From Hemicentrotus pulcherrimus (Eukaryota; Echinodermata; Echinoidea; Camarodonta; Strongylocentrotidae): 64,000 nucleotides of DNA. The notes under the pieces are model-generated. The model had not been told where the DNA came from and did not search any database. It saw only the letters and a program-made list of their open reading frames with translations. Of the stretch, positions 19,501 through 53,632 are shown in pieces (the stretch's first letter is position 1; every line of letters begins with the position of its first letter). The stretch covers positions 9,816-73,815 of the forward strand of contig BEXV01001406.1 of the NCBI GenBank assembly GCA_003118195.1. The letters run 5' to 3'. A program made the position numbers and the translations under genes.

Positions 19501-19599
19501 CCTCATATTTTAGCACATTGTTTAACTCAGGTGTATTATGTGACACCATACACTATATTAGCCTCTACAGATTGCAATGTTGGGTGACACCCTCATACA

Positions 19600-19735: not shown

Positions 19736-19989
19736 AATTGTGAATTTGTATTACAATACCTACATTATGTTCTTTGTTAAATTGTTGCTATTATTCATAT
19801 GTGTTAATTTTTTCGGGAATGTACATGTTATGTTAATTTCTTTAGTAATGTTTGACTTTCTTGGTAATTTAAGTATTAAAATGTTAATTTGTTCAGTTAT
19901 TTATAATTTTTTTCAGTTAAAATGCATAGTCGGTCATTTGCAAACTATTTAAGGTCATAATTTGGTTTAGTTTGATTTGATGATGATTG

Positions 19990-30975: not shown

Positions 30976-33900
30976 ATGATGGTATGTACCGAAAAATACA
31001 ACTCATTTAAAGTTAATACAGTAATAACGGTGTAAACGGATGGCACCAACACAATATTCTTGTAAAAGATAATTATTTAGTCCCGAACGTTAATTATCGT
31101 GTTTGCTTTGATTGACTGAGGTTACCAAAAACAGTTACACGCGTACACGGACAGTTACTTTGTGCTTAGATGGTTGTGCTTATTTATTCAAGATTAAAGT
31201 AAAGGGTAGGGTAGGGTAGGGTAGTGTATGAAAGGGTAGGGTAGTGTATGAAAGGGTAGAATAATTTCATGATAAATCAGTTCTCGCATAGACTCACCTC
31301 TGGCCCGCCGGCCGCCTTCGGCTTCAGCCAGTTTAGGTTAGGGTTAGCTAATTTGGATTTGGATTTGAAGAGTCGATAACGATAACTGTGAATGTGATAC
31401 AAGCATTGAAAATTGTATGATGCAAGTGTTCGTAATCACCTGGCGGATGAAAAGTTGAATTTTACGCTGTTTTGTGTGTCATTGCAGCGCCAAATTTGGT
31501 GTGTTCGTCGCTAATTTGTGACAAATGATATTTCATGCAAAATTTGTATTATATTCCCAGGTCGAAAATCCCATAGAGACCAATAGAGACCATTAGAAAA
31601 ATTCTATTGGTCTCTAATGGTTTCTGTTGGAGTCTATTGGTTTCTGTTGGAGTCTATTGGTTTCTGTTGGACCCATAGAATTGAATCCAATAGAGAGCAT
31701 TCAAACCATCAGAAACCAATAGAAACCAATAGCACCCATAGGAACCAATAGAAATAGAAACCAATAGGACCAATAGAAACCAATCAGCATCAGCATCAGT
31801 ATACGGAAGTGTAAGGTGATCCTGTTGAAACTTCCGGTCGTTTCATTGAGTGGTGCTTCGTTCAAAAAAATTAACCTGAACTATTTTTGCTCGCATGGCG
31901 GTCCAATAGGACCAATAGAACCAATAGAACCAATAGAAACCAATAGGACCAATAGGACCAATAGGACCAATATAAACCAATGAGACCAATAGAAACCAAT
32001 AGAAACCAACAGCTAAATCTATCTCGTGCATATTCATGATTACTTTATACTTGTTCACAGAAAATTACATTTATCATAATTTGTTAAGCAACTTATGACA
32101 ATGTACATCAATTTTGTGATTTTTATTTTCTTTCGGCAACTAATGACCAATAGATTATTTGTTTAATCATGTTACAATTTCATTCACGTTTTATCAATAG
32201 ATATATTGATTGTAATGATTACTAACCAAGAAACAATTCATGTATGTTTATTATATAGAGTAGTACAAGCCTTCTGTTAAAATAAAAGATATTCTTAAAC
32301 TTACTTCAAGTGATCTATGTGATGGAGTTAATGCAATTGAGATTAGAATATCCTTTTTTTGGTGGACAGTTGCTAAAATCGATTTTGATTTATCGTTATT
32401 GATTTACCAATAGAAGCCATTGGACCATTGGTTTCAATGGGGAATTCAGAATATGGGACCATTAGAAACTCATAGAAAGATCTCTAATGGACCAAAAGGA
32501 ACCCGATCTACCCATAGAAAATATCTAATGGACCAACAGAAACCCATCATAGGAGAAAATATCTAATGGACCAACAGAAACACATAGAAGACATGGGTGG
32601 ATGCTGGTCCAATTAGAAGCTTTCTGTTGGTCCATCAGCTTTCTTTCTGTTGGTTTGTGTTGGTCCAATAGGTATTTTCTAATGGTTTCTGTGGGTCCAT
32701 CATTTCACTTTCCCTATTGAAACCATTAGGCACCAATAGCTCTAATGGTTTCTGATGGTCAAATAGGATCGGATCCTAATGGAATTTCGACCTGGGTTGA
32801 TAAGCGCTGATTCTTGGCCTTACCTTTGACTTGTTTCTTGCTTGTTATAGTCATTTAGTAGATGAACTACTTGAATTTTGAGCACTTTTCAGTAACGCAA
32901 AAAGCCCAGGTTTTAGTTGCATTTGATTTTAATTTTGTTGCTAGGACTTCTCAAAGTTTTTGGATGCTAACTTTGATGTGAAGGACTGGGTGAATGCTGC
33001 ATTTAGAGCACAGAAGGACTCCCCAGAACAGAAGGATGTAAGTATTCATTGTGACCTCAAAGTAACAAGTGTCACTATCTCATGTGCCCCTGCATTGAAA
33101 TATATGAGATGCCTGTACAACGTAGGGACACTTCTCACTATGTACATGACTGACAAAGAAAGCGGACAAAATATACAGTTCCTCAGGCAGACAAAGGAAC
33201 ATCCCTTCACTGCTATTATGTAAAAATGTGTAGAACAGGTGTCACATGTATATTCACCTTTTTACATAATAGCAGTGAAGGGATGTTCCTTTGTCTACCT
33301 GAGGAACTGTATATTTCGTCCGCTTTCTTTGTCAGTCATATTAATAGTGTCTGTGCCATTTGCTCAGATTATTCTGTGTGCAGCTACTAATTAGGTTTTT
33401 AATACTTACTTTACTTTACTTTAATCCATTGATGTTGGTAGGACAGAGCCTGTTCATCGATCGATTGAATTCCTTTACATCAATACTTCTGTTCGTTGTG
33501 GTTTCGTGTCGAGGTGTGTGTATTAGACTATTAATTAGAAACAATTATTTACATCTGAGACCAACTCTTTAAAGGTAGGATTTACTACTTTAGCCAGAAG
33601 GGATTAGACTGCCCAGTGAGCCAGCGAGGTCACTGTGATAGGTAGCTATCTCATTAACTCAGCTCTCATTTGACATAAGAAAAAGAGGATCATGGGGGAC
33701 CAACAGGCACCGATTGGGGAAGTTTTCTATATAGAGGGAGCAAGTAGCTACAAGTAGTACAGTGTGCCTTTAAGTCACCATCCAAAATATGTGACTTTAA
33801 AAAGAACCAAACCAGGGTCCATCAGAGTTGGTTTGTAGGCAAAGACAAAGAGCCGGGCTCTATTTCACAAAACTTGTCATCTGTGAAAAAATGACAGTTT

Positions 33901-36900
33901 TTTTTTTTATAAGATAGTGAAATCCTTGCTTCTGATTGGTTATCAGCAGATTTGTCAATGATTTTTGTAATTTGTCATTGAAAAAAGCTCTGTAAAACGG
34001 GTCCATGATTACATTGCTAGACCACTTCACATCTCCCTAGGTGACAAATGTATGCTTTTCAACTTTTCTGACTGCTTTGGGCCTTGATCTGGATATTTTA
34101 TCTCTTCTCTTATTCTTTTTTTCTTCTTTTTGTTTTATTATGAAAGGGGTGTGGGTTATGGTTACATTAAAGTGTATTGGGTAAAGAAATAATCTCACAT
34201 AACAAATCACAACTCTGCATTATAGTATAATGAGAAGTCAAAAGATTAATAAGAGGGAGAGTGCAAACCAGTACATTTTCCTCAATAAAATACAATTTTT
34301 TTTTTTAATAATATTTTTTTGTTGTTGTTTTGTTTATGTGCCATTTTCAATGGCAAAATGCCCATTCTGTCCTGTAAAGTATCCTACAAGCATCTAACAT
34401 TGGCAATTTGGGGATGTTCATTGGTTCATCGAACACAGCAGTCGTGACAAAATCATGCATATTCAACCAATGGTCCATTGAGAAATTTCTTCCTGTATGT
34501 ACATGTAGGAACGGTAAGAGGCATTGATCCGTGTAACAGTCCGTGTTTATTTTTAAGAATAGAACTTTTGTTAGTAAAATACAACTTTGGGGATTAAAGA
34601 ATACAGTTTTTGAACTCCAGAGGTTGGCAGGTCTGAGAGTGTGGATTGTCAAGGGAACTTTGGGATGGTTTGGAGGTTGGAATTGCAAGCTAATGAAATA
34701 AATGTATACGTGTCTGAAATGCCTTTTATTTTGTTTGTATTTCAGGCCCATGCTGCAACGCTTGTCATGAAGTTACAGCTTTTCATTCAGGTAAGAAGAC
34801 AATGTGCCATAAGCCATTAATTTATTCAAGGGGGAACAAGAAAAGCACCATCATCATCATCAATAGTGATCCGTCCAAGGACAGGTTGAGTGAACCTATC
34901 AACTTCTGAGACAACTGTCTCTTAAACCAACTGTTTCACTTTAGCAAATCAACTCAAATACTGAACAAGTTAGCAAGCATATTCTTGAAACCAAAAGCTG
35001 TTAGGTATAGCTTAGCGAGAATTAAGGGCTTTACATCATTATTTATATTAAATATTCTACCATGAAACAGGTAAATAGTTTAGGCTTGGGTAGGAGGTAC
35101 AATGACTCAGTTGATAGAGCTGTGGTCTCGTAATTGATGCTGGTTCAAATTCAACTTAATATTCACAGTTGTACATGTATGTTCCACCTGATGCTACCTG
35201 AATGCAACTTTAAGTATTCTCTCCTTCCACTTTCTTTCTCTCTCCCTCTCTCTCTCTCNNNNNNNNNNNNNNNNNNNNNNNNNNNNNNNNNNNNNNNNNN
35301 NNNNNNNNNNNNNNNNNNTCTCCCCTCCCTCCCTCCCCCCCTCTCTCTCTCTCTCTCTGTCCCTCTCTCTCTCTCTTTAAGCGTAGTAATCTATGCTTAC
35401 ACACCCCTATCAGTTATACCAGGAGGAGAGATCTTAGATTGCACTCACATTTCCCTCCTAGACATGGTTGAAACCAAATGAATACTTACACATGTATAAT
35501 GATAATAACTAAATTTCTTCAATGCCTTCACCCTTAGGAAGTGAATAACTCTTTGGAGGAGACGAGTCAGCAAGCATTACAGAACTTACCTCGTGTTCTC
35601 AGAGATGTGGAGGCTGTACGACAAGAAGCCGGTTTCCTAAAAGATCAGATGCAACTTGTCAAGGAGGACATCAAAAAGGCATGGCATTATGAAGGCCTTC
35701 GTAAACCTTATCAGCTAACTAAAATTACGTTTAGGGAAATAGATGTGAAAAGAAGTCTTGAAAAATTGTAGATCTCATGTTTACGAGAAAAAAAAGAGGT
35801 CTTGAATGGTCTTTTGTTGAGTAATTGCATACAAACAAGTTTCAAGATGTTTCAGACTGTATGTGCTTTACAGATTGAATTGTGATTTCAATGATCTTGT
35901 TTGATATCGAAGACACAACATATATTTCCAAATGGGAAGATATGAGTCTATCAATCAATGTTTTATCACTCATGGGGGAAATCTACTTACACTAGATAAG
36001 ACTCTAAAACTTAGTTTGTCATTCTTGAGATCTTGAACCCAATGTTTTCATAGAAATCATCTTTCCTCATATTCATTTCCCTTTTCCTTTTCCTTACTAT
36101 CTATCACACTCTACAATTTTCCCTGTCTTTCTTTCTTCACTTCAACTCTTCATTTATATGTTTCTATTTCTGCCCTCTCATTTATTCATTATATCTCATT
36201 TCTATTTTTCTCTTCCCAATCTCATTTTATCTCACACTGTCATTCCCTAATATTCTTGTTAAATCTGTATGTCTATATCCTTCTACTTCTCATACCATCA
36301 TCTTTGTCTACCTGTGATATAGGTAGAGGAGGATACATCAGAGTCAATGAAGATGCTGTTGGAGATTGATACCATCAAGTCAAGGATGAAGGCTGCATCA
36401 GATGCACTCCAGGCAAGTAGCCCGACCATTCAATATGGGAAACATTTGTGCGTGGATACAATTGTATTCAATTCTGATGAGTTAGATATCATCTTTGAGT
36501 TAAAGCTAGGAATCTCCTGTTTTAGAATCAGACATAAACTAAACTATCACATCTAGGCAGCTTTTTTGTGGGGATTTGTGGTGTATGTCACATGTTCATA
36601 TTGCTAGCTGTTCATGTAATGAAGTGAACAAATACACCGAAGAAGAGAGCTATTTTTCTTTAGAAATCCCTAGAAAAGAAATTATAAAACAACAACAACA
36701 TAAAAGTCTTAGTGTAATACGAAAACTGAAAATAGCTCCTGTGAACAAAATATGATTATTGACACTGCTATAATATTGATCAACTATGTTTAAAAATAGG
36801 CACAAATGTGTCTATGAACAAGTGATTGTTGACTCAAACACGTATGCATCTGTAAACAGTTTTCAGCTTTAAGATGTCACAGTGTTAGCAGATGTGATTG

Positions 36901-39900
36901 ATTATTTGTATGATTTGTTTTACAGGAAGCAGATAACTGGACGACCTTGATGGCTGATGTTGATGAAGTTTTTGCTAGTAAGGATGTTCAGTTGGTAAGT
37001 CATTCTCTTCTTTTTCTCATCTCTCTTTCACTTTTATTATTTATATAATTGTATATTGATCTTCGACTTTTTTTCCCTTCTCCTTCAATCGTCTATTTTT
37101 CTACCCCTTCTTCTCTTCTTTTCCAAATAATACTTCCTGGTCAATACTACATGGTCAGAAAGAATTTTCCATCTTTTTCCTACCAGTTCTTATCCTTCAC
37201 TTTTTCTTTTTTTAGTTGTCCATCTTTTGTCTTTCACATATTGTACATGTCATCACAATGTTGTGTTGGTGTCTACTAGAATGTTGATTCAAAGCATGAT
37301 AAATAATGTACCTCACAATCATAAATGTATTCATTGTAGGTTGCCTTTGACTTTTCTAAAATTTTCTAACATAAAATAATTATAAGTCAAATTCTCATTC
37401 TTCATGTACTGTATGTGTGTTGCCAGAATAGATATTTTATTAATACTTTATTGAAATTACATTTATCTTGTCTCAAGATGCACTTTTCTTTATCGTGGAC
37501 TGGTTTTCTTTTTTCATTAGATTCTTATTTTTTCCTTTAGCTACTGGTTACATATTACTTAGTTATTTTACTTAATTTGCTTTACTATTATGCTTTGTGT
37601 TTTATCTACAGATTGCAGACAAACTACTGGCAATGCAGCACAGTCTGGTAAGGAAACTATGAATATGAATATGAATATGGTGGTGGTTATTTTACCTGAC
37701 TGCTAAGAAAGCATAAATGCTTGTAAGTAAGCAACCAAACGGCCAACGGCTTTAGGTCCTCTCCGAGGGACCTGGTAATGAGGATTAATGCCTTACCAAA
37801 GGGCACTAGCGCATCGACTTGGTTTCGAACTCGGGTCATTGGATTACGAGACCACTGCTGTACCTGTTAATGCTTTTATGGATTTTTAAAAATTATTATT
37901 ATTTTATTATTATTTTCTTTTGAATGGAATCTTTGAATGCAAAATCTCTTTGCCTTCACAATTTCTCTCACTTTTTAAGAATTCTGTTTATATTTTGTTT
38001 GAGTACCGGTATTCAATTTAATTTATACGTTTTAAAAAAAAAATTATTTATTAACATTTATTTCCTTCTCAACAGTACAATATGAAACACAATTTATATA
38101 TAAATTATATATGTAACAATGATTTCAACATTGAGTATACATTAAATTATTCAGATTACAGAAGGAGGCGAAAAACCTGAAAAGCTTGAGTTGGGAACGC
38201 ATATAATAGTTTAACACAGTACCAACATTTGAAGACATTTTCCATGCAATTTTGTCATCAATACATTTCTGTGAAAGGATCCTATGTCTAATGTTGAGTT
38301 TGTCTTGATCTTGTTTGTTTAGAGTATGTTAGCTCACTGTGGAGATTATGATGAGAGATGTCAGAGTCTGGAGGTTTTGAAGAATCGTCTAGAAGCTCTT
38401 CTGAGTCCTCAGCTTGTTAGTGCATTCAACTCACATTCACTGGGTGAGTTAGCTTGTGAGTGCATTCAACTCACATTCACTGAGTGAGCTTGTTAGTGCA
38501 TTCAACTCACATTCACTGGGTGAGTTAGCTTGTTAGTGCATTCAACTCACATTCACTGGGTGAGTTAGCTTGTGAGTGCATTCAACTCACATTCACTGAG
38601 TGAGCTTGTTAGTGCATTCAACCCACATTCATTGGGTGAGCTTGTTAGTGCATTCAACTCACATTCACTAGCTGAGATACACTGTAGGATGCAGATCATA
38701 ACTCACCCAGTTATGATCTGCATCCTACAGTGTATCTCAGCTAGGAAATTCAATTGAGTTACTAGAATAGATGATGTACTTCTAATGAACAAACTTATCT
38801 TTTAGCACTCCAAATTTAAGTTTGTAATTTGAAATATAATCTTTTGCAATTTATCACCTTGTCTTTAGATGTTCACAATGGTTTTGAATGATCCCTTAAC
38901 CCCTGATGCAATTTGAACAACACAGTTTGTCTGAAATTCACACTTGAACTCTTTGGTTTACTGTTTATATACCGGTATTTTATTCTTAATTCATGCCAAT
39001 CTATGTTCATGTTTATTGATATGTTTCTTTTGTAATTTTGCCTGTTTTTATCTGTGAACTATATCGCAATTCAGCCAACAACGGCTGCAAAGATATATTT
39101 TAATAAACCTTGAATTGAATTGAATTGAATAGAATTCAAGATTATTTTTTTTGTTTGTTATCACAAACCTCGGCTATAATTGACTCTATACATACATGGT
39201 GTATCTTTCTGTGGTACATGGAGGCATACATGTATGTACAAGCTTTAACTCTTGTTCACAACATCTTAAGATAAAACTGACTGCATGCATATATATTGTT
39301 TCCCGGGCCCATCCCTTTAGTACATTCCTGGTTGAGGTTTTTGGTGTGCTTTTCTGAAATACACACATGTAGAGATCACAAATCGCAAATCACAGTGTAA
39401 GTAAAGTCATAATGACAAACATCATAAATCCCGAGCAAAGAAATATACCATCTATTGTGTTAGGGAGATTATGTATTCATTTATCATTTTCAGTCAACAA
39501 CAAGATAAAACTTTGTCATTGTTAATTTTGTTTGTATGCATACATCGCATTTGGCTAATATTCTTCTTTCTTTTTTTTCAGAGGCTGCCCAGAGATATGT
39601 GAAAATATTCAAAGATATGGACAGATTGTCACAGCTCAGGAATTACTACTACAAATGCCATAAGGTAAGTTTAAATACCTTCATGCAATGATGGAGTTAT
39701 CTCTAGACGATATACTGAATGTATGTGATTGGTTGGTCGGTATATAGGAACAATTTAATGATAACTTTGCATTCTAGCAATGGCAAAACTTAATTCACAC
39801 AGAAACATACTGATCTTACATAAGAAATTTAGAGAGTATTAATATTTTAAATCGTATTTCTCTATCTCTCCCCCTCTCTTTCTCTTTCTACATGAATCTG

Positions 39901-42900
39901 TTCAACAGAGTTCCTTATTACTCCAGTGGCAGAAACTACAGGAAACTAACAGAGAAAAGGTCCTAGCAGAGTGGTTACCAACATTCTATGAAACATTGCT
40001 TACAACATGGCACAGAGAGGTAAGATATTATACTACCACCAAACATTGCTTACAACATGGCACAGAAAGGTAAGATATTATACTACCACCAAACATTGCT
40101 TACAACATGGCACAGAGAGGTAAGATAGTATACTACCACCAAACATTGCTTACAACATAACACAGAGAGGTAAAATAGTATACTACTACCAAACATTGCT
40201 TACAACATGGCACAGAGAGGTAAGATAGTATACTACCACCAAACTTTATTCATGTCAAGCATGAGGCCTACTGATAATATCTTCTTGCCGATTATAAAAG
40301 CTACATTGTAAACATGACATGAGGGGATAAATCCATAAAGAATGAGAACCTTAACTTCGTAATATTAACAATGTGACCTTTGACCCAATTATGACCTTTG
40401 AATCATGAAGTCCCCCATGGTAGATGAGCCTCTAGCTCAGAACCTGTCAGTATCCAGCCATCATTACCAATTGCCTATTATTTTCACTTTGTCACATGAC
40501 ATTTGACCTCATCTTGCCCTTTGTACCCGTAGATTCAGTGGTGTGATCAGGTCTTCCCTGGTGCTGTTCCTATGGTATGTGAGCTCCTAGCCCAGACACT
40601 GTCCAGTCTGCAGCCATCACTACCAGCCTGTATGGACTCTGCCCTGCAAGACAATGCCCTTCTCAACCTCATTGACCTCCGGCAGGTAACTATCATGGCT
40701 TTACAGACTCTGCTTCATAAAGCTTTTAACTACATGTATGCTGTAGTATAACAAGTTACAAAATAGCCTTTGATTTGCTGTGAGCAAACTTGTCTTTGAA
40801 TTTTGACACTGCTTTATGAAACAGGATTCTGGTCTATTTCATGTACATGTACAATTTATATGACACTATGTGTGTTGCATCGCTGCTTATATGGTTTGGA
40901 TGGAAACACGTAGAGATCATAATAGTTGCATGATTTGTTCTCAACTCACCTGAATTTTAAATTAAAAAAAACAATATTTATTCAGTTCTGGTGAGACTTG
41001 GAATGTCAGAGGTTTTTATAGAGACAGTAAGCAGTCATTGAAAAATAGTATGTTGGGGCAAGACATTGTTTCCACGGAAACAGTGCCTATTCCCTCCAAT
41101 TATCTTCATGTACATTGTAAATGTATTTTCATTAAGTTATTTGAGAAAAGTTTTTAAGCAATCATGATAATATAACCATAAAAACGGTGCTTTTAAAGCG
41201 CTTACCACCAAGTCTCTAAGCGCTATAACAAACAAAATAAAATGATAAACAATTGCATAATAATCAAATAAAGGATACTTTGTGCATTTTTGCAAAAGAT
41301 GTAGGCTACATGTAGGTTTACTTCACAGAGACTGTCATTGGTGAAATCATTGTTTTATTAATCATATATGAATTAGTACCTATACTATGTACACTATATC
41401 TGCTGCACTGTGTAAACAATATGCTATCAAGATGCTATCTGTTTATACGTTTGCATTGATCTACAGATCACATTGAGATTCATCAAAAGCTTAGAAGGAG
41501 CTATACAATCAGTGACAGGTAAGTCTTGAGATTCATCAAAAGTTTAGAAGGTGCTATACAATCAGTGACAGGTAAGTCTTGAGGGGTTTTTTTATGTGTA
41601 TTTTTTTTTTTTTCGGTTTTGGGGGTGTGCTTGTGATATACTGTCAGTTGTGGAGATCTGATGTTGATTTAAAAAAACAAAATGTAGGTAATAATCCTCA
41701 TTTCCAAGTCTGTGAGACGGCAGCCAGAGGTTTAGTTGCTTACTTGCCTACAAACATACATGCTTTCTTTTTTATGGTGCATGTTTATTATATCCACAAA
41801 TTAAATACACTTTCAGAATGTTGGCTTTGCAAAAGTTTCTATTATTGTATGTATTTATCACAGTTGCCCATTACTCCATTTTTCTTTCTGCAGACACACT
41901 AGTAGGCAGCCATTTTGAAGACCTTGTTCATGCTATCCATGCCCCTTACATCCCTTATTTGATAAGGTACGGCTTCTACGAGGAAGAACACTTGCTCCAA
42001 GAACTCTCAACTATCAACATGGCAAGTAGTTTTCGTCTTTAATTTGAAAAGGAAACTAATAGAGTTGGCCTCCTGATGTTTGAAAGATTGCATTGTTGAA
42101 AATACTTTGAGAGTATTCCTCTTTTTGAGAGAATATCATATTTGAATCTCTCTTTTAGGAGAACTCTCCCAAGGGAAACCATCATTACTATTCTCAACTA
42201 CACAATGTCAACCCTATAACTTACATATACTCTATAAATTTGTCAAATCTTGATCACTCCCTTTCCAATTCTGTTTTCCATTTCGACTCATTTTAACAAT
42301 GCATGTATATACACCTAAAATGAAAACAACAAAAGTCTTATGTCATTTAATTAAATGTTGTCATCACCTCAGTCATTGTTTTCTTCCTTTCGTTCAGGCC
42401 TCCATTAAAGTAATTATGAAATGTCCAAAATTTGATAAATATGTGAAATATGCACTTTTTTAATAAACAAATGCAAAAAAGTGTGGATTTTGACAAGAGA
42501 AAGAATGTTTTGGCAAATACAGCAAAGGAAAGAAAGAAAGGGTGAAATAGAGATGAAAACAAAGTAATTTTAAGATAAAGCTTGTTGAAACACAAAGTGA
42601 TTTGAAGTATTTTATCTGATATTCTTTTACAACAGGAAAGACAGGACTTGATAGACTGTGCACAGCTGCTATCAGATTCACTCAATAAGATATTCAAACT
42701 GACAAATGAGGTAACTATCAACTTATATTTAGACTAAACAACTAAAGTCTTTGTTTTGTGTGTGTGCTAGAAGGGACTGTCATTTTCTGAATGTGGGTGG
42801 GGGTGGTAGGGAGAGAGAGGAGACAGGGATGGAGTGACATTGTGATGGATTTAGAGAGCTGGGTTGGTATTCACTTCACTATTTATGTCAGAAAAATGAA

Positions 42901-45900
42901 TATTTTACTCATTTTGGGGCTTTATTGCCAACTTTGATGTTAGGTTGTATTGGCTAAATACAGGTATTTTACCCTCAATTGGACATAGCTTTCCTCGCGA
43001 ACTTAAGCCAAATATTTTGAAGGCCTTGATAGGAATGCATATGTTTTTCATATGCAGTCATCACAAGCTGCGCGCATATACCGTAATCGAATGTCACAAT
43101 GCTTATAAGTATGAAAGTCGGTTACTGAAGTCAAATATTTAGATGAATATGAGTTAAGGCATTTTACTTACTAGCCAATACAAATACTAAGTAAAGTACT
43201 GGCTTAATATGCATACTAAATTGAATACCGCCCCTGGCTCCCTTGTTTATTATAGATGTTGAGTTTGATACCATTATCCATTTTGGTTTTGATATCAACA
43301 TATGAAATATGTATTTCTTCACCTACATGTAAAACGCTGTTTATGTTTAATACCTTTGTTTAAAGGGAGTGTAACTTCGCAAATACTGGTTAACGTCGTC
43401 TTCTTTTGGACAACTGGACGTAAACGAATGGTCAGCGTTCGCGAAACAAACTGAAGTTCTCCTCACGCTTCGGTTTCGCATATGTTGCATGCACATGATT
43501 GCTGCGGTCGCATCGCCCGTAGTCGTATTATACCCGACTGACCCCAAGTCAGGCCACAGGAAAGACACATAGTCTCGTCATGCTACACACCCCATAATAG
43601 ACATGGCCCTGCTACCTTAGCCTCTAGCTTAGTCAATAAAAGTTCATACAAAGTGAGGAGTGATCCAGGCTATTTTTAAACTGTCAAACTTTTCCTCTTA
43701 CTGCTTGTTTTTCCAGGCTTCAGACAGGTGTACAGCTTTTACAGGAGGCTTTGGCATGGCTGGCCTATTATCAGCTCTCAAAGTAAGCTAACTTATTTGT
43801 TTATTTTTTTAATTTATTTCTTTAATTACTGCTCTTTGAAATCTATACTACCACTATTGTCTGGGGTGTAAATATGTCCTTAATAACATGTTATGATTGT
43901 GTGACTATGGTAGTCCAATGTGTCTTGTTCTAAACATGTTATATGATTGAATGATTGAGGAAGTCCAATGTTTGTTCCATTTATCAACCAAAGAGGACTA
44001 AAAGTTAAAAAGAATAGTATTGCCACTTACAAATCGTCTTTCCATGGATGATATCTTAAATATTTTACATACATGTATGGTGATACACTTTAAATAAGAA
44101 TATGTTTGACATCCATGATAATATTGGCTTTTACAGTGTAACGTTGTATTTGATTTAATGCATAATCCAATATGTACAGTATACCTTTAAGCTATAGGTA
44201 GATAAGAAAGAGAGTGAAAAAGAAAATGAGCAGGATTTCTTTGATACTGCGACAGGCCACATTCAGCTCGTACTGTCAGAAGTTTGACCGGAGCCTAGAA
44301 ACCTTGAGGTCAGCCTGCGGGCTTGACCCAGTAAGTACTAATGCCATGGTGACCTCTGCGGGGGCGGAGCTAGGGGAGGATTGGAGCAAGTTCCAGAATG
44401 CTCTCAAGATTGTTCAGACATGTGGTAAGCTTTATCAGTATTAGGGTTAGTGAGTGAAAGGTCATAAGTCAAAGAGGCCAATGGACATGGAAAGTCATGA
44501 CATACATGTATGGTCCATCCATAATTTCAGCATGCTCATCTACAGTACCATTTGTAGAATGGATAAGAAAATATTGAATGAGGAAGTTTCTACACAATGT
44601 TCCTGCTGCTAGTTGCTTAAATATTTCCTATTTTTGAGAATTTTCAAGTCCCATATATAGTTTTGTAAATCTTAACTAAATTTGATGCATACAGTAAACC
44701 TTCAATACATCCTATAACCTGATTGTGCATGGGGCTAAGGCGAGACAACGCAAGGCATTTGACATGTTTCGACATATAATATAGGAACTAAGAAAAGGAA
44801 GGAGATTTATCTTATATTCAATCTTGATGATAACCCTTTTTTATGCCTCCGCTTCAAAGTAGCCGGAGGCATTATTTTTGTAAGGCCAGTATCATTTCAA
44901 GCTCTGCTTACGATATCAGTTTTCTGCATTCTCCCCCTTTTCCTTCTTTTCAAAAAAGATTTATTTGTCAGGAGGTCGAGGGTCAAAGGTCACAGGGCTC
45001 ATTATGTATACAAAAATAGCTTGTGATCGAGTTATCTCAAGAACCAATTAATGGATTCCTGCCAAACTTGGGTCATGTATGTCTCTAATAGAGCCAATGA
45101 ACTGATTAGATTTTGGGGTCTCAAGGTCGAAGGTCAAAGGTCACAGGGCTAATTATGTATACAAAAATAGCTTGTGATCGCGTTATCTCAGGAACCGGTC
45201 AATGGATTCCTGCCAAACTTGGGTCATGTATTTATCAAACGGAGCCAATGAACTAATTAGATTTTGGGGTCACGAGTTCGAAGATCAAAGTTCACAGGGC
45301 TCATTATGTATACAAAAATAGCTCGTGATCGCGTTACCTCAAGAACCGATTGATGGATTCCTGCCAAACTTGGGTCATGTATGTATCTAACAGAGCCAAT
45401 GAACGGATTAGATTTTGGGGTCATGAGGTCAAAGGTCACAGGGCTCATTATGTATGCACAAATAGCTTGTGATCGCATCATGAGAACCAATAGACAGATT
45501 ACTATCAAACTCAAGACATGTACATGTATATATGTATCTTGCAGAGCCAATTAACTGATTAGATTTTAGGGTCATCAGGTCAAAGGTCATGTGGCTCATT
45601 ATGTATGACTATAAATGTGACCCGGCACCACAAAACCACCAAAAAGTAGCAAAAATTATTTTCCTGATTTCATCTGATTACGAAAGAAGAAGTTCTCCTC
45701 TTTAAAATGGTATATTACTTGTCCAAATTGAAGCTTCCTAACCCTTTCAATTTAGTGAATGAAAAGAGCTGGTGAGGGAGGTTACTGGTATTAAATTGTG
45801 AGAAAGAGAGCTTTAAAGTTTGGGGCTATTCAAGCATGCGGAGCAAGCAANATCCGAGACTCGAATGACATGGCCTAGTAGCTGGGTGGGCGACAGCTTA

Positions 45901-48900
45901 ATCCTCAGGTCGTGGGCTTTCTTTTTAATCACAATGACCTTCTCCTAGGTATTTTGGATAGCCTTGGGTACCGAGAGCCAGACACCCAATCATGTATAAG
46001 ACTACACCACAGATAAGTCTGAGTTGGATACCCTCCTGCTGCACCGTTCACCAGCTATATAATAGTTATGGAACCCTGCCACATCATTATCCACAAGAAC
46101 TCTTAACATAGTTCGAAAGAGGTTGATCATCGTGGTAGATAGTAAGATTGGTAGTTATCAGTTGTCACACGTTTGCTCTCTTCGTGTGACAACTGATCAA
46201 CTACCAATCTAACTCTTAACATGTGTGCATCCAAACATTATTCATAGTCTCCCATTTGCATTCATGGGTGTAGAACGGGTAATGCGCTGGATGACATTCA
46301 AGTATTCAAGAAACAAATATTCTTGCCGGTTGCTTGATATAAACACATGTACATAATATAGTAATGATACTGTGTCACTAAAAATGCATACCGTAATTCA
46401 TTTTGCTTTGAGTTTGGATTACCTAGTGATACACACATATATATACCATTGGATAGGTTTTTCCAGGAGTTACAAATCTGTCAAGAATTAAAAAGTATGT
46501 TGAGAAGGAACGTCATAAAACGGGCCCCTAAAAAAATAAGTTGGGTCACCATAAAAATACAATAATCATTATAATCTTCTATTTTTGGGGTGGTGTTTGG
46601 GGAATATTTGTGCAAAATGAAAAGTGTGAAACATTGTCTATTACATAGTACGGGATGTGGCTATAATTATTTGAAAAGATAAATATTGCCTTTTTCTCTT
46701 GGGCTCATGCATACCTCACATCTTACTGATTTGTTTTTATCACAGCTTATAGGTTGTAATTGGGATTGCCTAATCAATTGTTCGTTCTGGTGTTTGTAAT
46801 TATCCTGTAAATACTGGTTATCAAAAGCAAACAAATTTTCAGAATGGACTTTTATGCAAATATATCATATTATCTTCCTGGCAGTGCGTCACACAGCAGC
46901 TCTTTCAAGGAATATAATTACTTAGCCAGAGAAGATCCAGCCCAACATGCTGCCTTTCAGGAACTTATTCTCAAACTCAGAGAAGGTCAGTCCCATGTGT
47001 TGAATTTAGTGCTGTGTTTTAGTGGTTCACAATCAAACTTCAAATGCATACACTGTAGATCTGAATTGTATTCAAATGCATAGATTTGAAGAGATCTCAA
47101 GTATTTCTAGCAGCAGACATGTGCTAGACAACCTCAATCAGGTTGACTTCAAAATGCTTTTCTGCCACTAGTATCCAAAACAACCTCTCAGAAACAAGAC
47201 ATTAAAAACTTTAATTTTAGGATGTGGAATAAAAAATTAATAATGAGCTAATTCTGGTACGTATTATACTCGTCTATGTGTTTAGAATATTTTCTTCTTG
47301 TAAAGATCTATATTTACCTGTTACATAATAATCCCAAAATAGTATAGGCTGTTGTTGATGAATAATCCCTGTTGTACTAAAATCAAGACAGTTCATCACG
47401 TACACGTACATGTATGTTGAAATTTGGTGAAGAAAAAAATAATGATTTTGTACAGTTCTCCAGCTCTTGCTACCCTGAAGGCTTACATGTTCAGGGGGTG
47501 TTTTTTTAATGTTCAATGTAATGGGATTTCATTTCCTCCAAAATAATCTTTTTTGCTCTTAATTGTTGATATTCTTTTTCCTTTAGATGATGGTCCATCT
47601 TTACTTCAAGAGCCATTAGAAGCTATGTCAAAGATCACTGAGCATGCTCACAAGCTTGCGTTTGGAATCGTCTTCTTCCAGCTTCAACTTCAACTCTCAC
47701 AAGTTTCACAAATGGAGGTAAGAAAGCAGGGCTGCAAACCAGCCCCAGTATGGAGGAACATTACATTCTTCTCTTTTTCAGAATTTGTTTCTTTGTAGTA
47801 AAATAATAAATATAATAGTTTGTTCTTTATATAGCCCATTTTAGGACTGCAGGCCCTCTCAAGGCGCTTTACAGATATATTATTACCCCGGTCATCGGAT
47901 TCAGGCTTACCCGCACACAATGTATGCACATTTTTCACTCACTGGGGAGCAATCCGGCCAGACGTCTTTTTTACAAACGCACACTTGCTCATCTAACCAC
48001 ATTAACTTTCGCATCCTACCGGGTACCCATTTAACATTTGGGTCGAGAGTGGCCAATGTAGATCATTGTCTTACTAAAGGACATTAATGTTGCGGCGGGA
48101 CTTGAACCGCGGACCTTGTGATCCACAGTCTGGTGACGTATCCACTCGACCACAACACCTCTACGCGTGTAAAATAATTTTTTTTGTCTATTATGTTTTA
48201 AGAGAGTCCTATCAATGTTTTGGTTGGAGATTGGAAGGTATGGACAAGGAAGTGAGGGAAAATTTAGGATAGCCCTCAAACCAGATCCTTCTGGTATGTA
48301 CATGTAAATGAGCTGGATAGTCAAAAGATAAAGAAAGTCAACTGTTTGGAAAAACTAGGGTAGTTTCAAGATGAATACCTAATTTGTATCGTACACGTAC
48401 ATGACAAGTGTAATGAAATCAATATCATTGAAATCAACATTATCATCGACATTTTTTGTTTATTTTTGTTATTTGCCTGTTAAATGTTTATTTTAATTCA
48501 ATTTAATTATTTGAATTCTTGAAAACTTCAAACAAGTGAATACAATATTATATGTGAACACTGATACATAAATGTCTACCCAGTATGTACATCTCTCCAT
48601 TACCACTCCTATTTGCATGTCTTGTACTTTACATTCAGGTTTGGACTGATGAAGGAGGTATGCTTTCAGCTGATCTACCAACATTCAGTTTATCTCCTCA
48701 AGAATATATCACCAAGGTAATCTCAATCGAGGTTGGATTTGCCCATGATAAAAAAATACAAGTGAAATACAAAATGTTCAAAGTGAAATTTGACAAATCC
48801 TGTTTAAACGGAATGTGTTATTTTGCATAATTATGTTATTTTGGTATGAATTCAGTTACCAATATATTAGAAGGAGAGCTTATTGTATAGCACATAAAAT

Positions 48901-51900
48901 TAGTTTAAATGTTTTAGGTTTTAAGTATTTTTTTTTTTTAAATGGTCATTATTTGTCACGTCTCGGGCAAGTTTACAATGTTAATTTACAGCTCATGATC
49001 TAGAGCAGTGAATGATAGTACTGACATAGAAACAGAGACAAGTTACACGGTAGGTAGTTTGAAATGGAAATATTTCAAAGTGCTTTTTTTAATATCAAAT
49101 GGGTGCAGCAAAAATGTGTTTTCGAAGCTCAGCGCTACACATAATGCTTACACAGAATATGATATATTAAGGCAAGTCCATGGTCAGTTGATATGTATTC
49201 TAAATATTGTGCAGTTCTGAACATAATTCACTTCATATTTAATTCACTTCATATTTGGTATGATTTGAGCTCTTAGAAGCGCAATAACCTTAATACAAAT
49301 ACCAGATATATACATGGGTGTACTAAAATTTTGCATGTGGTTGCTAATGTATTGGACAGTGTACATGTACATTTGTATCTTGGCCTTTCCCAATAATATG
49401 GAGAGACATGTACATGTACATGTACATGTAAATCAGCAAAAATAAATAGGTGGAGATGTTGACAACATTGTTTGCATTTTCTGTGTAGATTGGTCAGTAT
49501 TTGATGACCCTACCCCAACAGCTTGAGACTTGTACAAGCCAGGATAACCCAGCCATGGAGAAGGCTTTAGAAGCTAGTCAACTACCATTCCCACCCTCAC
49601 CTGGTAAGTCAATCGTTTGGATCATGGGTGGATTTTTTATTTGTAAGTGACTGCTATTAAGAAAGCATGTGTATGCTTGTCAGTGAGCAACCAGGGGACC
49701 AGCAGCTTGAAAGGGACTTTGTAACATTTTTAAGATGAGAGATAGTGGTGCTAAGGTAGTGACTTCAATGCTAGATGTACACTTAAAGGTAATCTGAAAA
49801 TTTGAGTGAAAACGGACCATTATTCATGGTACAAATTGGATAAAACTGATCTGATCGATTCCTTAATTCTCCCAACTATATTATTACAATTTTATCACAC
49901 TTTAGGTGATTGCAAATCTCACAAAGCAATAAAATGTCTCTACATTCCATTCTAGACATTTAAGTGTTGACAGATTTTTTATAGCCTGTTTTATGTCTTT
50001 TTTTCATGGAAAAACGGTTGGGAAAATTCAAAAATGGTTGGGAGAATTTACTGTTAATCACTGTTAAAGGGTGCCTCACATCGACGCCTTCAAAGAAAAC
50101 CATAGATATCTTAATGGTTTGAGAATTTGTTCAGGAATTTTTGCATGACAGGGGTTAGTACAGTAAATGGAATATAGTAAGTAACATTTTATACAAAAAT
50201 TAAGCATTTTTTGTCATCAACCTTCAACAATGTTACCAAGTCACTTTAAGTCCCCTGCAAGGGACTTGGTAATGAGGATGCATGGCTCATTATCAAAGGG
50301 CACTAGTGAATCCACTAGATTTTGAACCCAGGTCCTCCCATCAACGAGACCCCTGCTTCTTCACTGAGCCTTCTCCCCTTCTTGAGGATCATCAAATGTA
50401 TATGTTTGTTTTGAAAGATCTACATGTATATTATGTATAAAATTCATAAAATTTATATAATGTTTTTCATTCTTTGTAATGGGTGTATCAACTTGTCAAG
50501 CCACATAAGCTTTTACTGATACGCCCTATTTTATTTTCCAATAATTTGTATTTAAATGTTATTCCTTTGTTTCACATACTTAAGTTGATTTGATATACAT
50601 TGTAAATGTTTATAACCTGTCTTTTGTTTTTACTGAATTTGAAATAAAATGGATCAATCAATCAATCAATCAATGTATTTAAGATAATAAATGTAAATGT
50701 AAGTACTGTATACAGTAAACAGTGTAGCTGTTTAGTAAAATATTAGTTGTTTCAGGAGTTTGGAACATTTCAGAAGTGTAGATTATTGGATGGTTACTGG
50801 ATTGTAGATCAAAAGGTTCATGGTTAAAATGAAGTCGATCCCTGCCACTGCACTAACGTCCTTTGGCAAGACATTAATTTAAGTTTGCCTCACTCCGCCC
50901 AAGTGAAGTGAATTGGCGCCAGTAGGTAATCATTCCTTGAATGCTTCAGCGCCTTCTTCAGGTCTAGAACTCGGTTTATAATCCAAAGCTTTTGGGAAGT
51001 ACATACAGACAGTATTAAATATGTGATATGTGGTTTCCAATAACTGATTACTGTTATTATTATTATTATTATTATTACTGACAGGTTCTCCAGAAGTGGC
51101 GCATCTCGCTGATTACTGGATTGGGTCTGTTGCCAGGGCAACCATGCATATGTATGTTGAGGTCATACTAAGGATCAATGAACTGACCCAACAGGCAACC
51201 AGACAGCTATCAACAGATATAGGTAAGGGAAAGCTCACAAAATGTCCGTTAGCATGACTGCCGCCCAACCGCTGTAGATCACAGCTTGCCTTCTTGTGAC
51301 TTTTCCTTCCCAGAGATGCCAGTTTTCAGGCAAAAGCCTGAATTCAAGCCCTGGCAACTCATCTCAGGCCATAGTTTAGGTTTTTTGTGTACAAATTGAC
51401 TAATTCTAGGTGATTTTCAGGCCCTCTGATCAATTCTAAGTGGTACCCCTGCCTTTTACATTTCTAGCAATTTTGAGACCCAAGTTTTGCATAAATTTGA
51501 CAGTCCCCTACACTATCACGCAATGTTACGTTATCTATTGTTGGGGCCTAAATTGAATGAAAATTGACATTTTGCATATATTTGTGTTGTGCCAAAATAC
51601 TGCTTTTAAATTGCTCTATGGCACTGCTAGTAGTGTCTTTCATTCATGCCTTTCTCCTGATCTTGTATGTTATGAAATTTAAAAAGATACATTCTTGAAG
51701 AAAAAGATACATCATACAAGCAAAGAAATATTAGATATGAATACAGTAGAGTACATAAGAGGTTAATAAAGCTGCAATAATTGCAAAAGGATTGATTTAG
51801 ATTTGACCTTTTTTCAATACACTATTTTGGGCCTTGCTGCTAAGAAACTTTTTTGGTAGAGATTGTCCTTCATGCCTTATTTTTAGAGTCTTTGAATTTA

Positions 51901-53632
51901 GCGAGCATATCTGATCTTTACCGTTCTTTTTGTGTTTTTATTTCTTTTAGATTATTTGTGCAATGTAGTTGATGCTCTTGGAATCCATCCATCTCAGAAT
52001 CTGAAGCATATTGAGGAACTTCTCAAGATGCCTCTCTCACAGTAAGTTTATACACAGACTTCTCCTATTGCTTCCTGCTGGGGAATTGCAAAGAAAATAT
52101 AGGGGTGTGCTTCCCAACTGAGTACGGAAGTATCATGGTCTAGTCAGAGATGCCAACCATGTACAATTGAATCATATTTAGTACGATAATAAGAGTGAAA
52201 TACGATAAAATAATATCACCTCTTAAAATAAGATTTTTCAACAACTAAAACAAAAACAAAACAAAATCTTTTTTAAACCCAGAAAAGCCGACTAAAACAG
52301 CGGAATCGCATAGAAACATGTTAAAAAATTTGCTTTACAATTTTCTCATTAAACTTTAATGAGCAAACATTTTACTTGACAGTACCAGTTAAACATTTTT
52401 TTTAGTGTCGATTTTTCGTAAAAATCCGATTTTTTTTTTAAGGTAGTCAGTCTGTTTTTTTTTATGTCAAGAGGTAGGCATCTCTGTCTAGTGGATGCAT
52501 CACTGGGTTGTGAATCACAATTGTTCCCCTGCAGCTTTAATGTCCTTTGGCAAGATATTAATCTACATTTGCCACTCTCCACCCAGCTGTTTTTTAAGGG
52601 TGCTGAAAGGCAGAAATTCCTTCAATGAATAAGGGCCTCATCAGCGAAATTCAGTTTGAGCTTGGGTAATAATATTACTGCAGGGCCTCAATAAACAAGA
52701 CCTATTAGTATAATGATAATTATTACTATTACTAGTATTTGTATCACTAGTATTATTACTATTACTACTACTATTATTATTATTATTACAACAGTAGAGT
52801 TTTCCATCTAGACCCCTCAACTCCTTGTCTTTAGTTTCTGCTTCAAATATTGTGCCAGATCGGAAGGTGTATTGTACACATTGTGTTGTCCATTGACGTG
52901 TAAATGAATCAAAACTTCACAAGTAAACAAAGGAATATGATTTTGACATTTCTCATGTTACTCTTTGGATTCATTAAATTATTGGAGCATTTGTGATGTG
53001 TATTTTATGTGTTTGTCTTCTTTCATCTTCCAGGCGTAACCTGGGGTGTGTTTCACAAAGATCCTAAGTTGAACTTATCTCTAAGTAGGACTTACCAATT
53101 ATGGAAAGCCATTAGCATCTATGAAAATACTTTTAAAACTTTATTTTAAATGGCATAAAATGTTAATTAGTAATGAGCATAGAAAGACAAGGAAATCAAG
53201 GTAGTACTAGCCACGACACCGTGTGTGTTGTCCCATATATAGCTTTCTGTGTACAGTGCTTGTTACTTTACCAAGACTCGGTCAAATTTATTATGATTTT
53301 GATGACTCCAAAACCTTGCAGTGCACACCAATACTTATATGCTACATGATCAACTGTTTCTTATCCTTTCCAAACCTTTTCTTTCACAATGCAATCGCAT
53401 AACCAGTACTATAGTTTATCTTTAAGGTTACTAATGGCTTTCCATAATGTTTAAGTCCAACTTAGAGTTAATTTCGACTTGGGATCTTTGTGAAGCAACC
53501 CCTTGGCCATGTGTTCTCTTTGATACATGTTCATCATCTTGTCTTTACTGCAGGTATGGTGAAGTGAAAGGAGTCATCCCAGACAGATTGATGCATGCTG
53601 TAGCCAGCATGAGGAGTGGAGCAGAGTCTTAG
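30976..53632 (+). CDS. COG7: COG7, conserved oligomeric Golgi complex subunit 7 (one exon missing)
   Basis: COG7 is a lobe B subunit of the COG tethering complex, needed for intra-Golgi retrograde transport and glycosylation. Exons: 30976-30981 (two ATGs), 32945-33037, 34746-34790, 35538-35678, 36323-36412, 36926-36994, 37612-37647, 38323-38443, 39582-39664, 39909-40019, 40533-40685, 41467-41518, 41894-42021, 42636-42710, 43717-43782, 44256-44424, [missing], 46843-46985, 47587-47717, 48639-48716, 49489-49603, 51085-51222, 51951-52041, 53554-53632. Human-like stretches are [50 protein letters not shown] and [11 protein letters not shown]. About 736 residues are visible; human has 770. The phase break (1 then 2) and absent human residues after TCGELL show one exon of about 105-110 bp is lacking. 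Introns 4, 5 and 13 start with GC. Confidence 0.93.
31200..31262 (+). repeat. GGGTA microsatellite in COG7 intron 1
   Basis: AAAGGGTAGGGTAGGGTAGG followed by GTGTATGAAAGGGTAGGGTA units. It is a short degenerate pentamer array, not a telomere. Confidence 0.85.
31556..32796. mobile_element. 1.24-kb terminal-inverted-repeat element made of CCAATAG subrepeats
   Basis: The left end CCCAGGTCGAAAATCCCATA is matched in reverse complement at the right end (reading CCCAGGTCGAAATTCCATTA inward from 32796). Between them, three blocks (31570-31795, 31895-32015, 32405-32775) consist of short ACCAATAGAAACCAATAGG-like units in both orientations. A less repetitive centre lies at 32020-32400. No transposase is seen, and TT on both sides is too short to call a target duplication. 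It lies in COG7 intron 1, about 0.6 kb after the ATG exon. Confidence 0.65.
33146..33339. repeat. 81-bp inverted repeat with 32-base spacer
   Basis: Arms 33146-33226 and 33259-33339 are reverse complements with two mismatches. The left arm begins ATGACTGACAAAGAAAGCGG and the right arm ends CCGCTTTCTTTGTCAGTCAT. It lies in COG7 intron 2 and would form a long hairpin in RNA or a cruciform in DNA. Confidence 0.95.
33845..34010 (+). repeat. Dispersed repeat family B, copy 1
   Basis: It shares the line TGAAATCCTTGCTTCTGATT, then GGTTATCAGCAGATTTGTCA and TTTGTCATTGAAAAAAG, with 59265-59372. It is MITE-like, with a CATCTGTGAAAAAATGACAG hairpin-like start, and lies in COG7 intron 2. Confidence 0.75.
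35090..35155 (+). repeat. tRNA-like SINE head fragment
   Basis: The plus strand reads like a degenerate tRNA: an A-box-like segment around AGTTGATAGAGCTGTGGTC, then 14 bases later a B-box-like GGTTCAAATTC. It lies in COG7 intron 3. It is not a functional tRNA because the acceptor stem is not formed. Confidence 0.5.
35221..35378 (+). repeat. CT microsatellite with a 60-base N gap
   Basis: Pyrimidine-only sequence of CTCTCTC type flanks an N run at 35259-35318. The gap is in the simple repeat itself, so the true repeat length is unknown. It lies in COG7 intron 3, about 160 bases before exon 4. Confidence 0.9.
37695..37868 (-). repeat. tRNA-derived SINE-like copy (family 1)
   Basis: On the minus strand the head contains AGCAGTGGTCTCGTAATCC and the B-box-like GAGTTCGAAACC. 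The body (GGTCCCTCGGAGAGGACC, TTGGTTGCTTACTTACA) is shared with 19990-20195. It begins about 50 bases after COG7 exon 7. Confidence 0.7.
38411..38667 (+). repeat. 36/40-bp tandem repeat seeded by COG7 exon 8 end and its donor
   Basis: Seven units beginning CTTGTTAGTGCATTCAACTC or CTTGTGAGTGCATTCAACTC, with starts spaced 40, 36, 40, 40, 36 and 36. Unit 1 is the last 33 bases of exon 8 plus the intron's first bases (CACTGG|GTGAGT). Units 3, 4 and 6 keep a usable GGTGAG donor. Reading through the first donor meets a stop codon in unit 2. Confidence 0.95.
38668..38744. repeat. Perfect 36-bp palindrome with 5-base loop
   Basis: Arms 38668-38703 (CTAGCTGAGATACACTGTAG onward) and 38709-38744 are exact reverse complements around the loop CACCC. 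It directly abuts the last unit of the exon 8-derived tandem repeat. Confidence 0.97.
38940..39132 (+). mobile_element. LINE 3' end with TTGAA repeat tail
   Basis: The line ending CAAAGATATATTTTAATAAA then CCTTGAATTGAATTGAATTG has the form of a non-LTR retrotransposon 3'UTR with a short tandem tail. It is truncated and lies in COG7 intron 8. Confidence 0.5.
39991..40245 (+). repeat. 50-bp tandem repeat seeded by COG7 exon 10 end and its donor
   Basis: Five units start AAACATTGCTTACAACATGG at 39991, 40041, 40091, 40141 and 40191 (period exactly 50), with a broken sixth. Unit 1 is the last 29 bases of exon 10 plus intron start. Every unit keeps an RGAGAG|GTAARA or RGAAAG|GTAAGA donor. Fifty is not a multiple of three, so only donor 1 (and possibly 4) keeps the frame. 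Confidence 0.95.
40373..40470 (+). pseudogene. Decayed partial copy of COG7 exon 11 and its acceptor region
   Basis: 40414-40470 (CCCATGGTAGATGAGCCTCT... CAGCCATCATTACCAA) aligns with exon 11 at 40567-40626 (CCTATGGTATGTGAGCTCCT... CAGCCATCACTACCAG). The preceding TGACCTTTGACCCAATTATG aligns with TGACATTTGACCTCATCTTG before the true exon. The first 36 exon bases are missing from the upstream copy, and its acceptor AG has become GAAGT. Confidence 0.7.
41475..41580 (+). repeat. 53-bp duplication of COG7 exon 12 end and its donor
   Basis: GAGATTCATCAAAAGCTTAG... GACAGGTAAGTCTT at 41475-41527 is followed at once by a second copy at 41528-41580 with two or three changes. Splicing from the first donor gives the conserved frame (VT|D). 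Reading on gives an in-frame TGA after GKS. Confidence 0.95.
44975..45612 (+). repeat. About 151-bp tandem array, five units, with DR1-type motifs
   Basis: The line GGTCAAAGGTCACAGGGCTC recurs at 44981, 45132, 45283 (degraded), 45427 and 45578. Units share CATTATGTATACAAAAATAG, CTTGTGATCG, GCCAAACTTGGGTCATGTAT and GAGCCAATGAACTGATTAGA. AGGTCAAAGGTCA (a perfect DR1 nuclear receptor site) is present in units 2, 4 and 5. The array lies in COG7 intron 16 next to GCCTCCGCTTCAAAGTAGCC, a palindromic sequence at 44847-44873. Confidence 0.9.
45851..45851. other. Single-N assembly join where a COG7 exon is missing
   Basis: It lies between exon 16 (ends phase 1) and exon 18 (starts with one leftover base). 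No sequence between 44425 and 46842 encodes the residues expected from human COG7 after TCGELL. Confidence 0.75.
46145..46210. repeat. 26-bp inverted repeat
   Basis: AGATTGGTAGTTATCAGTTG (continuing TCACAC) and its reverse complement (GTGTGACAACTGAT, then C, then AACTACCAATCT) are separated by about 12 bases, with one inserted base. It lies in COG7 intron 16/17. Confidence 0.9.
47815..48168 (-). mobile_element. tRNA-derived SINE-like element (family 2), fullest copy
   Basis: Reading the minus strand from about 48168, there is a class II tRNA-like head: A-box-like TGGTCGAGTGG, then GTCCGCGGTTCAAGTCCCGC with the B-box GGTTCAAGTCC. The body contains the 5375-5490 homology (CGGATAAGCC-like, AGCGCCTTGAGAGGGCCTGC). 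Related fragments lie at 50785-50940, 52495-52620, 55140-55330 and 5375-5490. It starts about 100 bases after COG7 exon 19. Confidence 0.75.
49640..50380 (-). repeat. Interrupted SINE-like family 1 copy
   Basis: 49646-49735 (GTGACTGCTATTAAGAAAGC, GAGCAACCAGGGGACCAGCA) and 50244-50372 (CAAGGGACTTGGTAATGAGG, GGGCACTAGTGAATCCACTA, CCCAGGTCCTCCCATC) are two halves of the family 1 body. About 500 bases of unrelated sequence lie between them, as if another element had inserted. Confidence 0.55.
50540..50675 (+). mobile_element. LINE-like 3' end with TCAA repeat tail
   Basis: GAATTTGAAATAAAATGGAT followed by CAATCAATCAATCAATCAAT has the form of a retrotransposon 3' terminus. It lies in COG7 intron 21. 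Confidence 0.45.
50785..50940 (+). repeat. SINE-like family 2 fragment (sense)
   Basis: TGGTTACTGGATTGTAGATC, AAAAGGTTCATGGTTAAAAT, CGTCCTTTGGCAAGACATTAA and CTCACTCCGCCCAAGTGAAG correspond to the reverse complement of the 48168-48030 segment. Confidence 0.65.
52145..52486. mobile_element. 342-bp hAT-like MITE with target duplication TCTAGT
   Basis: It begins CAGAGATGCCAACC and ends GGTAGGCATCTCTG; the outer ten bases CAGAGATGCC are a perfect inverted repeat. TCTAGT lies immediately on both sides (52139-52144 and 52487-52492). CAG...TGCC ends and an nTCTAGnn target are typical of hAT elements. The interior is AT-rich and non-coding. Another CAGAGATGCCAG at 51311 may mark a truncated relative. 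It lies in COG7 intron 23. Confidence 0.75.
53043..53502. mobile_element. 460-bp foldback element carrying repeat family A, copy 2
   Basis: The left end GGGGTGTGTTTCACAAAGAT (then CCTAAGTTGAACTTA) and the right end (reading TAAGTCCAACTTAGAG, GACTTGGGATCTTTGTGAAG, CAACCCC) are inverted relatives over about 60 bases. TTACCAATTATGGAAAGCCA pairs with TGGCTTTCCATAATG further in. The centre 53165-53425 is the shared family A sequence. It lies in the last COG7 intron and ends about 50 bases before exon 24. Confidence 0.8.

What the first reader, a model, noticed from the sequence alone, without database searches (positions are those of the whole stretch)
38411..41580. Tandem repeats seeded by exon 3' ends plus splice donors in COG7
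Three alternate exons of one gene (8, 10 and 12) each carry a tandem duplication that starts inside the exon, includes the 5' splice site, and repeats into the intron: 7 units of 36/40 bp, 5 units of 50 bp, 2 units of 53 bp. The first unit is always the functional one. Random minisatellites would not keep starting at exon ends. It is known that tandem duplication of AGGT-containing exon segments can create or shift introns; this may be that process, or local replication/repair slippage at splice junctions, caught in action. The multiple intact donors also predict competing splice choices.
Basis: partly seen in the sequence, partly recalled or inferred. Interest (0 to 1): 0.8.

Follow-up and report, generated by a model that had tools for sequence, protein, structure and literature searches.

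The report
Tandem repeats overrunning exon ends
In a sea-urchin gene, three short stretches of DNA that span the end of an exon have been copied several times in a row into the intron behind it, most likely by ordinary copying slippage that does little harm because the first copy still works.

Summary
In COG7 of a sea urchin (711 of 721 aligned residues identical to Strongylocentrotus purpuratus), three alternate coding exons each run into a tandem array that starts 28-45 bases before the exon end and contains the donor. The S. purpuratus protein joins at the first donor in all three, and 10 of 10 downstream donors tested give a premature stop. No intron was created: the acceptors lie outside the arrays. 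Microhomology of 4-5 bases at two arrays, and a perfect 36-bp hairpin beside the third that carries an inverted copy of its donor, point to replication slippage and template switching. The pattern is not donor-specific: an array in neighbouring TRAPPC14 starts in its last coding exon and crosses the stop codon. I propose that extra copies of an exon's 3' boundary are tolerated because they fall behind the working copy. Four of 20 arrays start this way against 0.54 expected (nominal P 0.002), but the window was chosen for it; without the finding's three it is 1 of 17 against 0.46. A minisatellite supplying several splice donors is already known (human IFI6).

The parts
38323..38443 (+). COG7 exon whose last 33 bases are unit 1 of array A
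38411..38676 (+). Array A: units of 40, 36, 40, 40, 36, 36 and an incomplete last one; donors at 38444 (working), 38520, 38560 (same score), 38636 (weaker)
38668..38744 (+). Perfect hairpin (36-bp arms, 5-base loop) at the end of array A; 38699-38711 is the reverse complement of the unit's donor region
39909..40019 (+). COG7 exon whose last 29 bases are in unit 1 of array B
39991..40244 (+). Array B: 5 units of 50 bases plus AAAC; donors at 40020 (working), 40070, 40120, 40170 (weak), 40220
41467..41518 (+). COG7 exon whose last 46 bases are in unit 1 of array C
41473..41583 (+). Array C: 2 units of 53 bases plus TTGAG; donors at 41519 (working) and 41572
40414..40469 (+). Decayed copy (79%) of part of the exon 40533-40685, lying upstream of it in the intron
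19129..19500 (+). Array E: 109-base units; unit 1 begins in the last coding exon of TRAPPC14 and contains its stop codon (19191-19193)
13962..14337 (+). Array D: 72-base units, beginning 13 bases after the end of a TRAPPC14 exon (13949); the donor is not part of the unit
32945..53632 (+). COG7 gene, 22 coding exons located, one missing

Best explanation
The three arrays are young minisatellites made by replication slippage or template switching at short direct repeats (inferred), each of whose units happens to straddle an exon's 3' boundary. They are kept because the duplication puts every extra copy downstream of the working boundary: the exon still ends at the first donor (supported by the ortholog's protein, no RNA seen), and the further copies are just intron. 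The same holds for a stop codon: an array in TRAPPC14 starts in the last coding exon, and its extra copies fall into the 3' untranslated part. Some extra donors are intact and may be used at a low level, which would give transcripts with premature stops, presumably removed by nonsense-mediated decay (inferred).
For: Arrays and exon ends. Ortholog joins at the first donors. 10 of 10 downstream donors give a stop. Microhomology AAAC and TTGAG at arrays B and C. Perfect 36-bp hairpin with 13 bases of inverted donor sequence, one of only 2 hairpins with arms of 15 or more and a loop of 3-30 in the window. Units 1, 3 and 4 of array A are identical and 93 bases recur exactly at a distance of 116, so array A has grown recently. 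Stop-codon array E.
Against: Random placement expects 0.54 such starts among 20 arrays and 4 are seen (nominal P 0.002), so tolerance alone, without a raised duplication rate or chance, does not explain the number. No depletion at the 5' side of exons can be shown: 0 seen, 0.54 expected. Array A has almost no microhomology once the hairpin is allowed for. No RNA or second genome was available.
Confidence: 0.72

Rival explanations
1. Exon ends, or the donor sequence itself, raise the local rate of tandem duplication (for instance through transcription- or splicing-linked strand breaks), so arrays are seeded there in excess.
For: 4 of 20 arrays start inside a coding exon and contain its 3' end, 0.54 expected, nominal P 0.002; a fifth starts 13 bases after a donor.
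Against: The window was chosen for the pattern; without the three of the finding 1 of 17 against 0.46 (P 0.37). One of the four is at a stop codon, not a donor. No whole genome was available.
Confidence: 0.13
2. Intron gain or sliding by tandem duplication of an AGGT-bearing segment, caught in progress.
For: Units of B and C contain AG|GT, as in the Rogers model described in PMC4974935.
Against: The introns exist independently of the arrays: acceptors lie outside, and the ortholog joins at the same places. The unit copies have no pyrimidine tract before their AG (sequence).
Confidence: 0.05
3. The repeated donors are selected, for example as a decoy or a brake that sends a share of COG7 transcripts to decay.
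For: Intact spare donors in three exons, all 10 tested leading to a stop.
Against: Several spare donors are damaged (40170, those of units 2 and 5 of A); changes are found in exon- and intron-derived columns alike (3 and 3 in B), as expected of neutral copies. No function is needed.
Confidence: 0.05
4. Assembly artefact: unit numbers, or whole arrays, are wrong.
For: The assembly is a draft: 1429 bases repeated at 99.93% across a single N and two diverged versions of a TRAPPC14 stretch across another.
Against: No N lies within 38-42 kb; the units of B and C carry different substitutions, which an assembler does not invent. Unit number in A, with 93 identical bases, is the least sure.
Confidence: 0.05

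Closest known systems
Human IFI6 (G1P3, 6-16) minisatellite providing multiple splice donor sites (Turri, Cuin and Porter 1995)
   Same: A tandem array at an exon end whose units each supply a splice donor.
   Different: In IFI6 two downstream units are used as donors, giving three mRNA species (sentence seen in PMC4526556); here no use of downstream donors is known and all 10 tested would give a stop. The original paper is not held; its unit of 12 bases is recalled, not seen.
Variable internal tandem repeats at human exon-intron boundaries in segmental duplications (PMC2812944, passages seen)
   Same: Minisatellites, about 30-bp units repeated 4 times, that modify gene structure at exon-intron boundaries.
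   Different: There recent paralogs and changed proteins or new introns; here a conserved gene with an apparently unchanged protein.
Intron gain by tandem duplication (Rogers 1989; ATP2A1; potato RdRp, PMC4974935, first of five parts read; Drosophila, PMC2891723, passages seen)
   Same: Tandem duplication of a segment with AG|GT or crossing an exon boundary.
   Different: No new intron here: the introns have acceptors outside the arrays.
Template-switch mutations that create perfect hairpins (PMC8794818, abstract and outline seen)
   Same: Perfect reverse-complement arms with a short loop, made in one event.
   Different: The ancestral state here is inferred from the array itself, not from a relative.

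Membership tests
Minisatellite with multiple splice donors (IFI6 type) | Tandem array across an exon 3' end with a donor in several units | tested here: met
   Three arrays
Minisatellite with multiple splice donors (IFI6 type) | Downstream units used as donors in mRNA | not testable with these tools
   No RNA data; 10 of 10 downstream donors would give a stop
Intron gain by tandem duplication | New intron whose donor and acceptor both come from the duplicated segment | tested here: not met
   Acceptors at 39582, 40533 and 41894 lie outside the arrays
Intron gain by tandem duplication | Related gene lacks the intron | not testable with these tools
   No eukaryote DNA collection; only proteins of relatives
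Microhomology-mediated slippage duplication | Short direct repeat at both ends of the duplicated segment | tested here: met
   AAAC for B, TTGAG for C; not for A, where the end of the array is rebuilt by the hairpin
Template-switch mutation | Perfect reverse-complement copy of adjacent sequence with short homology at the switch points | tested here: met
   36-bp arms, 38671-38711 is the reverse complement of donor segment plus right arm; 3-base matches at both switch points read by eye
Template-switch mutation | Ancestral state without the hairpin in a relative | not testable with these tools
   No relative's DNA held

The most novel reading that the evidence does not exclude
Tandem duplications are filtered by the direction of gene expression: arrays that start inside a coding exon and overrun its 3' boundary, whether a splice donor or a stop codon, are tolerated and accumulate, because the first boundary met is the one used, while arrays over 5' boundaries are removed. 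Genomes with many minisatellites, such as sea urchins', would then carry thousands of spare donors and stop-flanking coding fragments, a standing stock for new splice forms and longer C-termini.
Probability: 0.2. Interest if true: 0.6.

Novelty: new member of a known kind. Interest (0 to 1): 0.36.

Why it matters
If the polarity rule held genome-wide it would give a simple prediction for where tandem duplications survive in genes, and natural replicas of the classical duplicated-donor experiment. Three exons of one gene with identical repeated donors would let splice-site choice between identical sites be read from RNA-seq. As it stands it is one window and a known kind of array.

Tried and rejected
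Solved structures: no match of COG7 by sequence, not pursued. ATP6AP2, the right-hand gene: the homologue search with joined pieces gave nothing; Pfam renin-receptor families matched; its exons were not mapped, so the placement test covers bases 1-54000 only. A first guess of AGCT microhomology at array A was dropped: that AGCT belongs to the hairpin.

Placement test: 20 arrays are every TRF or lag-scan row with a unit of 20 or more bases starting below 54000, overlapping periods merged; the first run used 14 and left out six (234, 1135, 14769, 15581, 27027, 50010), which are in the second run. Rows with units under 20 and two rows beyond 54000 (56027, 62167) were not used. The 5'-end figure of the 'cluster merged' run is faulty (a negative index in my script) and is not used; one search repeats it correctly: 0 seen, 0.54 expected. 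The shuffle control of the lag scan was 2 shuffled sequences, none with a score of 16 or more.

Acceptor-side duplicate: the exon-derived part is significant (alignment score 33.2 against a maximum of 19.25 in 300 shuffles), but the intron-derived part alone is not (12.0 against a maximum of 14.0). That the duplication once spanned the acceptor is therefore inferred from position only.

Papers: 10 of 10 searches used. None of the listings showed a report on this gene or on arrays at sea-urchin exon ends by title; listings were capped (12 of 125, for example) and the library is partial.

Full report
What the window is. The + strand carries TRAPPC14 (472-19193), COG7 (32945-53632) and, on the other strand, part of ATP6AP2. 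COG7 matches Pfam PF10191 (E 1e-152 and 2e-59). The closest protein of those listed is COG7 of Strongylocentrotus purpuratus; 711 of 721 aligned residues are identical. TRAPPC14 is named from its Lytechinus hits, ATP6AP2 from Pfam (the gene name is recalled). The species was not identified beyond 'a sea urchin, S. purpuratus or a near relative'. Four single Ns and two N runs mark a draft assembly; one COG7 exon (about residues 484-518 of the ortholog) gave no match in the window at E up to 10, and a single N lies in that intron (45851).

Anatomy. Array A (38411-38676) has units of 40, 36, 40, 40, 36, 36 and an incomplete last unit; B (39991-40244) has five units of 50 and four more bases; C (41473-41583) has two units of 53 and five more bases. 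They start 32, 28 and 45 bases before the last base of their exons. Scored with a matrix made from 18 GT donors of the gene itself (the three first donors included), the first donors score 6.7, 12.1 and 13.7; downstream ones 6.7, 6.7 and 5.8 in A, 11.3, 12.1, 5.7 and 12.1 in B, and 13.7 in C, with two further GTs at 4.9 in A. Units 2 and 5 of A have lost their donor's score.

Which donor works. The S. purpuratus protein continues across all three junctions exactly as expected from the first donors. Ten downstream donors were tested in the reading frame: 10 of 10 lead to a stop, nine of them within the array and one (40069) in the next exon. This is inference from protein and frame; no RNA was seen.

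No new intron. The three introns are 1138, 513 and 375 bases long and end at acceptors outside the arrays. The duplicated segments have AG|GT in B and C, but no copy provides the acceptor of an intron in use. This fails the defining feature of intron gain by tandem duplication as described in PMC4974935.

How they arose. At B the four bases AAAC and at C the five bases TTGAG stand at the start of unit 1 and again after the last unit: the mark of duplication between short direct repeats. At A the end of the array is changed by a perfect hairpin, 36-bp arms and 5-base loop (38668-38744), folding at -68.8 kcal/mol against a shuffled mean of -19.5. It is one of only two hairpins in the window with arms of 15 or more and a loop of 3-30 bases. 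Its centre TAACTCACCCAGT is the reverse complement of the donor region ACTGGGTGAGTTA, which occurs in the window only in units 1, 3 and 4 of array A. Bases 38671-38711 are exactly the reverse complement of that donor segment followed by the right arm. The simplest history is that the last unit once ran ...CACTGG|gtgagttatgatc..., and that a polymerase switched strand, copied back through the donor and returned, as in the template-switch mutations of PMC8794818 (abstract and outline seen). In A units 1, 3 and 4 are identical and 93 bases recur without change 116 bases on, so growth is recent or copies have been homogenised. In B three of six variable columns lie in the exon-derived and three in the intron-derived part; both changes in C are in the exon-derived part.

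Not only donors. In TRAPPC14 a 109-base array (19129-19500) starts inside the last coding exon and its first unit holds the stop codon at 19191-19193; copies of the C-terminal codons recur downstream. A 72-base array begins 13 bases after another TRAPPC14 exon end without including the donor. A 57-base piece of the COG7 exon 40533-40685 lies, 79% identical, upstream of it; its exon part is significant and its intron part is not, so a duplication across the acceptor is only inferred.

Chance. With 32 coding exons on 1-54000 and 20 arrays placed at random, 0.54 would start inside an exon and contain its 3' end in unit 1; 4 do (nominal P 0.002). With the 14 arrays first chosen, 0.42 and P 0.0005. 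The window was selected for the pattern, so these values cannot be taken at face value. Without the three of the finding it is 1 of 17 against 0.46, P 0.37. At 5' boundaries 0 are seen and 0.54 expected, which says nothing. The excess is thus a suggestion.

Reading. Tandem duplication of a segment that straddles an exon's 3' boundary leaves the first boundary where it was and puts all extra copies behind it. A donor or a stop codon met first is the one used, so such duplications survive; copies of an acceptor or a start codon would come before the working one. That explains why first units are the working ones and why a stop codon is found in the same position as three donors. It does not by itself explain the number in this window, for which chance, a local tendency to slip, or a real excess remain open.

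What is known. A minisatellite that supplies several splice donors is known from human IFI6 (title in the reference lists of PMC2572611 and PMC4526556, and one sentence of the latter). Internal tandem repeats at human exon-intron boundaries are known (PMC2812944, passages). So are novel introns from tandem duplication in Drosophila (PMC2891723, passages). The case here is a new member of a known kind, unusual for three arrays in one conserved gene.

Noticed in passing
19462-20890 and 20892-22320: 1429 bases repeated at 99.93% on both sides of a single N: most likely overlapping contig ends left unmerged.
   Followed up: partly
13560-14256 and 14341-15060: Two versions of one TRAPPC14 exon with a 72-base array, 86% alike over 735 columns, with 5.2 and 4.1 units, on both sides of a single N: two haplotypes set in tandem, or a real duplication.
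   Followed up: partly
35679, 36413, 42022: Three of 21 COG7 donors are GC instead of GT; the ortholog's protein agrees with these junctions.
   Followed up: partly
44425-46882: One COG7 exon is missing from the window; the single N at 45851 probably hides it.
   Followed up: partly
19164-19193: TRAPPC14 reads nine residues further than the Lytechinus protein before its stop, within the first unit of the 109-base array.
   Followed up: no
5015-5130: An array of about 40 bases, two copies by scan and a third by eye, lies just upstream of a TRAPPC14 acceptor at about 5146.
   Followed up: no
31570-32770: A stretch of (C)CAATAGAAA-like repeats on both strands upstream of COG7.
   Followed up: no
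44973-45476: 151-base units, 3.4 copies, in the intron with the missing exon.
   Followed up: no
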